From Okeania sp. KiyG1 (GTDB taxonomy: Bacteria > Cyanobacteriota > Cyanobacteriia > Cyanobacteriales > Microcoleaceae): 64,000 nt of DNA. A program made the translations under genes and the position numbers. Shown here one piece after another: positions 33,250 to 36,052 of this stretch (within the stretch, counting starts at the first letter, position 1; every line of letters begins with the position of its first letter). The DNA lies in contig NZ_BLZO01000042.1 in NCBI RefSeq assembly GCF_014132355.1, forward strand, positions 39,055-103,054, in the 5' to 3' direction. The notes under the pieces were generated by a model. It had not been told where the DNA came from, did no database searches, and saw nothing but the letters and a program-made list of their open reading frames with translations.

Positions 33250-33849
33250 GATGGTCAAAGACATTTAGATTTTCAACTTCAAAAGGTGAGTCTAGGAAAA
33301 GAAACTATTGAACAATAGTAAGGGCGATCGCCCACAAATGCCAAACAAACAGTCTCTGAGGAAAATTGAGATGGAGGGAGACGTTTAGATTTTCAACTTC
33401 AAAAGGTAACTCACGGAAAAAAAACTATTGGACAATAGTAAGGGCGATCGCCCAAAAATGCCAAACAAACACTATTTTTCAATGTTCTTTTCCACTATTG
33501 TTCAATGGATTCAACAACATCAAGATTCAGAATATCTCGGCAGTGGTATTGATGCGTTGTGGTATTTAGTCGTAGGCGAGGAAAATTGAGATGGAGGGAG
33601 ACATTTAGATTTTCAACTTCAAAAGGTAACTCATGGAAAAGAAACTATTGGACAATAGTAAGGGCGATCGCCCAAAAATGCCAAACAAACACTATTTTTC
33701 AATGTTCTTTTCCACTATTGTTCAATGGATTCAACAACATCAGGACTCAGAATATGTCGGCAGTGGTATTGATGTGCTGTGGTATTTAGTCGTAGGCGAG
33801 GAAAATTAAGATGGTGGAAGACATTTAGATTTGCAACTTCAAAAGGTGA

Positions 33850-34008
33850 TATTATGTCCGGATAATTAGTGATAAAAAAACTTTCTCCTTTTCCTCCTGT
33901 TTATTTTTTCTTCTTGCTTCTTTCTTCTTCTTTCTTACCTCCTGACTCCTGACTCCTGACTCCTGACTCCTCCGTCATTTATTTATAAGTATTCAACCGG
34001 ACATGATA
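33850..34008 (+). mobile_element. 159-bp MITE, TATCATGTCCGG family, inside the cassette array
   Basis: Ends TATTATGTCCGG and CCGGACATGATA, with TGA duplicated at 33847-33849 and 34009-34011. Uninterrupted units read AAAGGTGAGTCTAGG at this point. The body contains CTTTCTCC and CTGACTC heptamers. Confidence 0.9.
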
Positions 34009-35572
34009 TGAGTCATGGAAAAGAAACTATTGGACAATAGTAAGGGCGATCGCTCAAAAATGCCAAACAAACACTATTTTTCAATGTTCTTTTCCACTAT
34101 TGTTCAATAGATTCAACAACATCAAGATTCAGAATATGTCGGTAGAGGTATTTATGCGCTGTGGTATTTAGTTGTAGGCGAGGAAAATTGAGATGGAGGG
34201 AGACATTTAGATTTTCAACTTCAAAAGGTCAGTTATGGAAAAGAAACTATTGGACAATAGTAAGGGCGATCGCCTAAAAATGCCAAACAAACACTAGAGT
34301 TCAATTTTCCTTTCCACTATTGTTCAATGGATTCAACAACACCAAGATGAGGGAATATGTCGGCAGAGGTATTGATGCGTTGTGGTATTTAGTTGTAGGC
34401 GAGGAAAATTGAGATGGAGGGAGACATTTAGATTTTCAACTTCAAAAGGTAACTCATGGAAAAAAAACTATTGGACAATAGTAAGGGCGATCGCCCACAA
34501 ATGCCAAACAAACAGTCTCTGAGGAAAATTGAGATGGAGGGAGACGTTTAGATTTTCAACTTCAAAAGGTAACTCACGGAAAAAAAACTATTGGACAATA
34601 GTAAGGGCGATCGCCCAAAAATGCCAAACAAACACTATTTTTCAATGTTCTTTTCCACTATTGTTCAATAGATTCAACAACATCAGGATTCAGAATATGT
34701 CGGCAGTGGTATTGATGTGCTGTGGTATTTAGTCGCAAGGGAGAAAAATTGAGATGGTAGAAAACATTTAGATTTGCAACTTCAAAAGGTGAGTCTAGGA
34801 AAAGAAACTATTGGACAATAGTAAGGGCGATCGCCCACAAATGCCAAACAAACAGTCTCTGAGGAAAATTGAGATGGAGGGAGACGTTTAGATTTTCAAC
34901 TTCAAAAGGTAACTCACGGAAAAAAAACTATTGGACAATAGTAAGGGCGATCGCCCAAAAATGCCAAACAAACACTTGAATTCAATCTTCTTTTCCACTA
35001 TTGTTCAATGGATTCAACAACATCAAGATTCAGAATATCTCGGCAGTGGTATTGATGCGTTGTGGTATTTAGTCGTAGGCGAGGAAAATTGAGATGGAGG
35101 GAGACATTTAGATTTTCAACTTCAAAAGGTAACTCATGGAAAAAAAACTATTGGACAATAGTAAGGGCGATCGCCCAAAAATGCCAAACAAACACTTGAA
35201 TTCAATCTTCTTTTCCACTATTGTTCAATGGATTCAACAACATCAAGATTCAGAATATCTCGGCAGTGGTATTGATGCGTTGTGGTATTTAGTCGTAGGC
35301 GAGGAAAATTGAGATGGAGGGAGACATTTAGATTTTCAACTTCAAAAGGTAACTCATGGAAAAAAAACTATTGGACAATAGTAAGGGCGATCGCCCAAAA
35401 ATGCCAAACAAACACTATTTTTCAATGTTCTTTTCCACTATTGTTCAATGGATTCAACAACATCAAGATTCAGAATATCTCGGCAGTGGTATTGATGCGT
35501 TGTGGTATTTAGTCGTAGGCGAGGAAAATTGAGATGGAGGGAGACATTTAGATTTGCAACTTCAAAAGGTGA

Positions 35573-35758
35573 TATTATGTCCGGATAATTAGTGATAAAA
35601 AAACTTTCTCCTTTTCCTCCTGTTTATTTTTTCTTCTTGCTTCTTTCTTCTTCTTTCTTACCTCCTGACTTCCCCTCCTGGGAGGGGTTAGGGGTGGGTT
35701 GACTCCTGACTCCTGACTCCTCCGTCATTTATTTACAAGTATTCAACCGGACATGATA
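35573..35758 (+). mobile_element. 186-bp MITE, same site in a second cassette unit
   Basis: Same ends, same TGA duplication (35570-35572, 35759-35761) and same target position as the copy at 33850. It has an additional CTTCCCCTCCTGGGAGGGG.. segment and point changes. Most likely copied with the unit, then modified. Confidence 0.88.
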
Positions 35759-36052
35759 TGAGTCTAGGAAAAGAAACTATTGGACAATAGTAAGGGCGAT
35801 CGCCCAAAAATGCTAAACAAACACTTGAGTTTAATTTTCCTTTCCACTATTGTTCAATGGATTCAACAACACCAAGATGAGCGAAGAACTCGTCAGAGGT
35901 ATTGATGCGTTGTGGTATTTAGTTGTAGGCGAGGAAAATTGAGATGGTGGAAAACACAAGGCAGGAGTCATAGCGTTTCACGGAAGTCAGAACATATGAT
36001 ATTTTCAAGGTGAATTTGCGCAAGTCCTATTTATTTAATCAGGTAACATAAC

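What the first reader, a model, noticed from the sequence alone, without database searches (positions are those of the whole stretch)
33250..35945. A 2.7-kb array of copies of the NACHT gene's own 3' end
After the stop codon the last ~95 bp of the gene plus ~125 bp of non-coding sequence repeat at a ~220-bp period, giving nine extra tail copies. Several remain open (..GIDALWYLVVGEEN stop) while others carry stops or shifts. It looks like a store of alternative C-terminal ends that could be recombined into the gene, like silent cassettes, or like the debris of such exchange. Each unit also carries ACTATTGGACAATAGT and GGGCGATCGCCC, which could serve as recombination or structural sites.
Basis: partly seen in the sequence, partly recalled or inferred. 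Interest (0 to 1): 0.82.

Follow-up and report, generated by a model that had tools for sequence, protein, structure and literature searches.

The report
Repeated gene-end array with constant dyad
Behind an immune-type gene of a marine filamentous cyanobacterium, the gene's last ~97 bases plus a spacer with a fixed two-fold-symmetric motif have been multiplied; the array differs in size between related genomes and has recombined with the gene's end, but it looks more like a by-product of recombination than a store of alternative protein ends.

Summary
The array is real. After the NNH2-NACHT-HEAT gene (29026-33249) lie 12 dyad-bearing units to 35945: 9 carry a further copy of the gene's last ~97 bp, 3 are 120-bp units without it. 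The genome belongs to the genus of Okeania (inferred). At the probable orthologous locus four related genomes have 5, 1, 4 and 0 extra tails; at a second NACHT-HEAT locus three genomes have 2, 2 and 0. A sister clade (Hydrocoleum/Trichodesmium group) has tail arrays with another spacer. Recombination between gene tail and array is supported: at the second locus the last silent copy is array-type on its left and native-type on its right. A store of useful C-termini is not supported: 9 of 22 Okeania copies and 12 of 14 sister-clade copies are broken, Okeania copies have no third-position excess, and the tail is the conserved end of the protein. The constant part is the dyad CTATTGNNCAATAG: arms unchanged in 32 of 32 units, about 300 copies in this genome, usually one per unit in many unrelated tandem arrays, also the centre of a ~89-bp MITE, and rare outside this clade. 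Best reading: dyad-associated tandem amplification plus homologous recombination at a gene end. New variant of a known kind.

The parts
29026..33249 (+). NNH2-NACHT-HEAT gene, 1407 aa (bacterial NACHT/NLR-like)
   Evidence: PF22734 NNH2 3.1e-27, PF05729 NACHT 1.6e-10, PF13646 HEAT_2 8.1e-97
32084..33131 (+). HEAT block, 10.6 x 99 bp; very different in some orthologues
33153..33249 (+). gene's own tail (C-terminus TIIQWIQQHQDSEYVGRGIDVLWYLVVGEEN)
33250..35945 (+). array: 12 dyad units, 9 with a tail copy, 3 without
33304..33319 (.). first dyad ACTATTGAACAATAGT; the other 11 (ACTATTGGACAATAGT) start at 33424, 33644, 34026, 34246, 34467, 34587, 34807, 34927, 35147, 35367, 35776
33304..33423 (+). 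120-bp unit without tail; two more start at dyads 34467 and 34807
33493..33589 (+). silent tail copy 1 (open); further copies 33713-33807, 34095-34191, 34315-34412, 34656-34752, 34996-35092, 35216-35312, 35436-35532, 35845-35942
33848..34009 (.). MITE-like insert TATTATGTCCGG...CCGGACATGATA inside a unit (limits approximate)
   Evidence: read directly
35573..35757 (.). same insert at the same site of another unit, with a further small insertion (limits approximate)
   Evidence: read directly
11032..11116 (.). solitary MITE (ends like AGGACTTACGCA/TGCGTAAGTCCT) with the same dyad in its centre
39223..39307 (.). second solitary MITE with the dyad in its centre

Best explanation
A gene-end tandem array formed and kept moving by general recombination. 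Shown: a full unit is the last ~97 bp of a NACHT-HEAT gene plus ~125 bp of spacer; unit number differs between probable orthologous loci; the dyad CTATTGNNCAATAG is the constant part of the units; nearly all tail copies begin at one point of the gene, where the gene partly matches the dyad and the copies match it better; at a sister locus an array copy and a native-type tail have recombined. Inferred: a spacer carrying the clade's dyad came to lie behind the gene, the segment was duplicated by slippage or unequal crossing-over, and copies were then multiplied, deleted and homogenised by crossing-over between tails. Because each full unit ends in the same conserved tail and stop, most exchanges would leave the C-terminus intact, so the array is tolerated rather than kept as a cassette store. 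What the dyad does (protein-binding site, extruded hairpin, replication obstacle) is not shown.
For: Extra tails at the window locus and its probable orthologues 9, 5, 1, 4, 0; at the second locus 2, 2, 0 (orthology, both flanks for G001, one flank for G002, G004, G005). Chimeric last copy (L020): of 15 diagnostic columns the first four are array-type and the other eleven (four in the tail, seven behind the stop) are like the array-less site (flanks). Dyad arms: 0 of 14 sites vary in 32 units (28 distinct), against 13 of the other 30 sites of the same stretch; in 17 further arrays 28 of 204 arm sites vary against 244 of 822 others. Dyad-like left edge in 33 of 36 copies and 2 of 14 genes (rows are related, so its p-value is not a probability). 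Among the 60 genomes, tail arrays were seen only in genomes that carry the dyad in numbers.
Against: A strict test found no excess of array ends at the dyad: 15 of 68 ends within 5 bp, 16.8 expected; an earlier, looser test gave 13 of 44 against 4.5 but counted stray solitary dyads as array members. So the dyad goes with the arrays but is not shown to be their breakpoint. The L027 array has no dyad in its units. In one search five of 17 arrays have 3-8 variable arm sites. pN/pS of copies is below 1 (0.29-0.47) and sister-clade copies have 12 of 22 variable sites at third positions (p=0.03), which may mean recent copying from genes, or more than decay. At the three tail columns 72, 83 and 91 the expressed tail of L020 is also native-type, so the partner of the crossover is not fixed, nor is its direction.
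Confidence: 0.6

Rival explanations
1. Silent-cassette store: intact tail copies are donated by gene conversion into the NACHT-HEAT gene to vary its C-terminus.
For: A gene with silent partial copies behind it; 13 of 22 Okeania copies open; some haplotypes are shared between a gene in one genome and silent copies in another, e.g. CAGGACTCA with GATGTGCTG in the window gene, in window copy 33713 and in L059 copies but not in the L059 gene; a switch inside the tail at the second locus.
Against: 9 of 22 and 12 of 14 copies broken; a frameshift variant shared by six Okeania copies in four genomes and by none of 14 genes; third-position share 10 of 27 in Okeania copies, p=0.41; the tail is conserved across genera, so little diversity is on offer.
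Confidence: 0.1
2. Purely passive minisatellite: the dyad has no role and is carried along because it sat in the spacer.
For: Many tandem arrays here lack the dyad: 20 of 42 noncoding arrays in loci that were chosen around dyads, two of them in the window; array ends are not at the dyad; an array without dyads arose at the L027 gene junction.
Against: Dyad arms vary less than the rest of the unit; the arms stay while the two central bases differ between genomes; 10 of 14 sister-clade copies have the perfect dyad at the left edge of the tail, at the price of a stop codon.
Confidence: 0.25
3. The dyads are binding sites of a clade-specific DNA-binding protein (iteron-like or transposase-like), and arrays persist as clusters of sites; the gene tail is a passenger.
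For: Two-fold symmetric constant half-sites with a free two-base centre; usually one site per unit, at spacings of 66-380 bp; centre of a MITE; in numbers only in two genera and one neighbour genome.
Against: No protein identified: 0 of 30 fetched Y1-transposase loci has a dyad (of the other Y1 matches one, G000:C83:9076, lies about 2 kb from a dyad); other protein families were not searched. Conservation could be homogenisation.
Confidence: 0.3
4. Assembly artefact: unit number and order are false.
For: Draft assemblies; identical copies occur; L059 has a run of N between two identical copies, and in L065 single Ns stand between two pairs of identical copies, so the G035 count of 8 may be too high.
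Against: Window units differ by substitutions and inserts, and related arrays recur in separately assembled genomes.
Confidence: 0.06

Closest known systems
Silent-cassette antigenic variation (pilS, vlsE; recalled, no call)
   Same: a gene with partial silent copies beside it; recombination between them
   Different: the copied part is the conserved end, many copies are broken, no sign of directed conversion
MITE-like tandem repeats at DGR/NACHT loci of Thiohalocapsa PB-PSB1 (PMC10907252; passages and section 7 read)
   Same: repeat-derived arrays beside conflict-type genes; structural turnover; duplicated target C-terminal regions
   Different: there the arrays match transposon ends and have replaced DGR parts; here units hold one dyad and a host gene tail
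REP/BIME palindromes and small dispersed repeats (PMC3116915, PMC3733652, PMC2817692 seen as search listings only; the Nostoc small-dispersed-repeat work is recalled)
   Same: short palindromes, hundreds per genome, clade-restricted
   Different: no Y1 transposase gene beside the dyads in the 30 loci examined; arrays have locus-specific units
Bacterial NACHT proteins (bNACHT/Avs type; recalled, with passages of PMC10907252)
   Same: N-terminal domain, NACHT, C-terminal repeats
   Different: the tail array; none of the titles and abstract starts listed by eight searches describes one

Membership tests
silent-cassette antigenic variation | gene plus several silent partial copies | tested here: met
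   9 copies
silent-cassette antigenic variation | silent copies carry intact alternative coding segments | tested here: not met
   9 of 22 and 12 of 14 copies broken; tail conserved
silent-cassette antigenic variation | transfer of silent sequence into the expressed gene | tested here: inconclusive
   chimeric tail between genomes at the second locus, direction unknown
silent-cassette antigenic variation | variation within a clone | not testable with these tools
   needs reads
REP/RAYT elements | high-copy palindrome | tested here: met
   291 exact copies in G000, 0 for the reversed control
REP/RAYT elements | Y1 (RAYT) transposase gene flanked by the repeats | tested here: not met
   0 of 30 fetched Y1 loci (1.9-3.4 kb each) hold a dyad; Y1 matches without a locus were not examined
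MITE | short dispersed element with terminal inverted repeats | tested here: met
   20 of 27 single dyads in fetched G000 loci lie in elements with GACTTACGC/GCGTAAGTC-like ends, one more in half an element (my count of the rows)
MITE | target-site duplication | not tested
   not examined
MITE | array units in the window bounded by those inverted repeats | tested here: not met
   none seen in the 220/120-bp units (none of the window hits lies in the array)
bacterial NACHT (NLR-like) protein | NACHT domain with N-terminal domain and C-terminal repeats | tested here: met
bacterial NACHT (NLR-like) protein | protection against phage | not testable with these tools
   needs experiment
known structured RNA | Rfam match | tested here: not met
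   0 matches at E<=1 in 28000-37000

The most novel reading that the evidence does not exclude
A clade-specific factor acts at the dyad CTATTGNNCAATAG and drives amplification of whatever lies beside it; at NACHT-HEAT genes the resulting row of like tails serves as a set of right-hand anchors through which whole HEAT sensor blocks are exchanged between alleles while the conserved C-terminus and stop are restored each time. This would be a recombination-based way for bacterial NLR-like genes to renew their sensor.
Probability: 0.12. Interest if true: 0.82.

Novelty: new variant of a known kind. Interest (0 to 1): 0.5.

Why it matters
It turns one odd array into a comparative system: related loci with 0 to 9 tail copies, an array-less site, a switch point inside the tail, and a clade-restricted dyad that stays constant inside otherwise changing arrays. 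It would let one test how repeat-rich filamentous cyanobacteria remodel the ends and sensor blocks of NACHT genes, and whether a short palindrome can drive array growth.

Tried and rejected
Known structured RNA: no Rfam match. Phage or plasmid origin: no match of the 240-bp stretch in the plasmid or phage collections; the exact dyad in 6 IMG/VR stretches, one match each. REP/RAYT: 0 of 30 Y1 loci with a dyad. Dyad as array breakpoint: first test positive, stricter test negative, dropped as a claim. Donor of the different HEAT blocks: two blocks searched in 13 genomes; apart from each query's own locus, matches above 150 bp are only 64-74% identical (short left-end pieces of 67-145 bp reach 77-91%), so no donor is shown and fast turnover in place remains possible. 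Dyad conservation was first measured on units picked by the dyad itself (biased), then on units picked by a flank; one false anchor (L059 13135) and one unit with N (L059 8940) were dropped. One search took arrays whose consensus holds the dyad, skipped three with fewer than four distinct units, and counts partial edge units. Tail alignment: eight rows dropped (one with N, seven distant hits); for pN/pS five more copies were left out, for L071 (contig edge). Noncoding-array counts come from loci chosen around dyads and are no genome rate. Folding: the 48-base unit piece with the dyad and GGGCGATCGCCC folds at -5.8 kcal/mol, z -2.6, in two small hairpins, but the tail-edge dyad of a sister-clade copy does not fold better than shuffles (z -0.15), so hairpin formation is not established.

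Full report
OBSERVATION. The gene at 29026-33249 encodes 1407 aa with NNH2, NACHT and HEAT matches; four PADLOC models match, best stretches within residues 1007-1366. Its stop is followed to 35945 by 12 units, each with a dyad (11 ACTATTGGACAATAGT, the first ACTATTGAACAATAGT). Nine units carry a further copy of the gene's last ~97 bp; three 120-bp units do not. Two units carry the same MITE-like insert at the same place, so units were duplicated or converted after the insertion.

ORGANISM (inferred). G000 is an 11-Mb draft of 198 contigs. In genus g7, G017 and G022 match Okeania-labelled SIO3I5 and SIO2F4, G035 Hydrocoleum CS-953, G029 a Trichodesmium MAG; G012 matches Microcoleaceae MO_207.B10.

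RELATED LOCI. A 240-bp stretch of the array was searched in 60 genomes including the own one; 15 of 60 had a match. Tail copies beyond the gene's own: window locus 9; G001 5 (one cut by N); G002 1; G004 4; G005 0. That these are one locus rests on both flanks for G001 (88-100% in most windows), on the downstream flank for G002 and G005, and for G004 on its upstream match to G002 (93.6%) and a partial downstream match. The G002 and G004 genes there lack the part that aligns to the NACHT middle of the window gene, and the G001 reading frame ending in the tail has only 571 aa, so not all of these genes are whole. A second locus (G000:C33, G005:C25, G002:C197) has 2, 2 and 0. In g7, G035 has 8 (two pairs of identical copies each separated by a stretch with a single N, so perhaps 6), G017 3 and 2 at two loci (each including one partial copy), G022 1. 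There the spacer is a different repeat, GTAGGTTGGGTT...AACCCAACCTAC, which in G012 stands once behind the gene with no tail copy. A single tail match was found at G005:C22, G012:C173, G002:C197, G004:C287, G022:C169 (contig edge), G029 (two places), G026, G007, G031, G008 and G000:C83.

SWAPS. L069 (G002:C197) is array-less: its gene tail runs straight into a flank that in L020 (G000:C33) stands behind the last tail copy. Of 15 columns where L069 differs from the middle copy of the array, L020's last copy is array-type at the first four and L069-type at the other eleven, seven of which lie behind the stop; L062's last copy is array-type at the same four, L069-type at the next three, then broken by a deletion. 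At those three tail columns the expressed tail is L069-type too. A crossover inside the tail is the simplest reading; whether the array was gained or lost is open. In the same comparison the flanks are mostly 91-99% identical, the NNH2-NACHT half mostly 84-98%, but over the HEAT block there is no match or 71-83%. G004 at the window locus likewise has a different HEAT block. No close donor was found.

CASSETTE TEST. Of 22 Okeania copies 13 are open, 3 have a stop, 6 a frameshift; of 14 g7 copies 2 are open and 12 have stops. All 14 gene tails are open, one (L020) ending three residues early; this concerns the tail codons only. Variable sites at third positions: 10 of 27 in Okeania copies (p=0.41), 12 of 22 in g7 copies (p=0.03), 13 of 28 in genes. 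pN/pS is 0.28 for genes and 0.33 for copies (0.44-0.47 for Okeania copies), so copies are young or often refreshed from genes. The tail's protein sequence is conserved into other genera. A cassette store is therefore unlikely.

THE DYAD. Exact ACTATTGGACAATAGT occurs 291 times in G000, the reversed control 0 times. With a free centre it is in 24 of 291 genomes: all six Okeania (29-300 per genome), all seven g7 members (2-119), G012 (10), and ten further genomes with one each; the reversed control hit one genome. Centres differ (GA, TT, CG, TA and others) while the arms stay. Of 174 exact dyads in fetched G000 loci (of 291), 147 lie in 19 groups of two or more (one, L024, is three separate MITEs) and 27 are single; 20 of the 27 are the centre of a MITE. 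Groups have locus-specific spacings, mostly 66-380 bp, beside quite different genes. In the NACHT-tail arrays the arms do not vary in 32 units while neighbours do (shuffle p 0.002). In 17 other arrays 28 of 204 arm sites vary against 244 of 822; ten of the 17 have none, five have 3-8. These tests ignore relatedness. Copies of the tail have a dyad-like left edge in 33 of 36 cases, genes in 2 of 14; 10 of 14 g7 copies have the perfect dyad, which makes a stop.

CONTROL CASE. At an unrelated place (L027, G000:C80) a 190-bp unit holding the end of one gene (ATPase-like by eye, not searched), the start of the next and a TCAGTTA run is repeated about 8.6 times, 96-100% identical. So gene-end arrays arise in this genome without this gene and without the dyad in the unit.

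CONCLUSION. The array is real, shared in kind by a genus, and changing. It most likely arose by tandem amplification and homologous recombination at a gene end, together with a clade-specific dyad whose constancy is the least explained point. Eight library searches listed no paper whose title or abstract start describes this dyad or such tail arrays; the library is open-access only. Of papers, PMC10907252 was read in passages and section 7, PMC7159879 in passages, the rest as listings. On checking, I lowered the best explanation from 0.62 to 0.60 and the novel case from 0.13 to 0.12 because orthology rests on one flank for three genomes and some of the genes are not whole, and raised the artefact rival from 0.05 to 0.06 because of the Ns in L065.

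Noticed in passing
window 29995-30368: In-frame 117-bp x 3.2 low-complexity repeat (PLDKGGQGG type) within the NACHT region; the best Pfam NACHT stretch begins only at profile position 72.
   Followed up: no
window 37869-38096: A repeat of similar look (PLERGES...) lies in frame in the histidine-kinase-like gene downstream.
   Followed up: no
window 6190-8087 and 52979-53953: Two further noncoding tandem arrays (340 bp x 5.8; 192 bp x 5.1) without the dyad.
   Followed up: no
L027 12648-14287 (G000:C80): Gene-junction array: 190-bp unit with the end of one gene, the start of the next and TCAGTTA repeats.
   Followed up: partly
L020 against L069; window against L061: HEAT blocks of orthologous NACHT genes differ far more than flanks and NACHT or N-terminal parts; no donor found.
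   Followed up: partly
L061 about 7115-7240, 7463-7590, 8032-8158: A different ~125-bp insert with inverted ends sits at the like spacer site in three units of the G004 array, as the MITE-like insert does in the window.
   Followed up: no
L065 3350-3365 and L068 about 6964-6979: Spacers that look homologous in two genomes have ACTATTGTACAATAGT and ACTGTTGCGCAACAGT: both arms changed together, pairing kept.
   Followed up: no
L060 and L061 (G002, G004): At the window locus these genomes have shortened NACHT-HEAT genes lacking the NACHT middle, yet keep the tail array.
   Followed up: no
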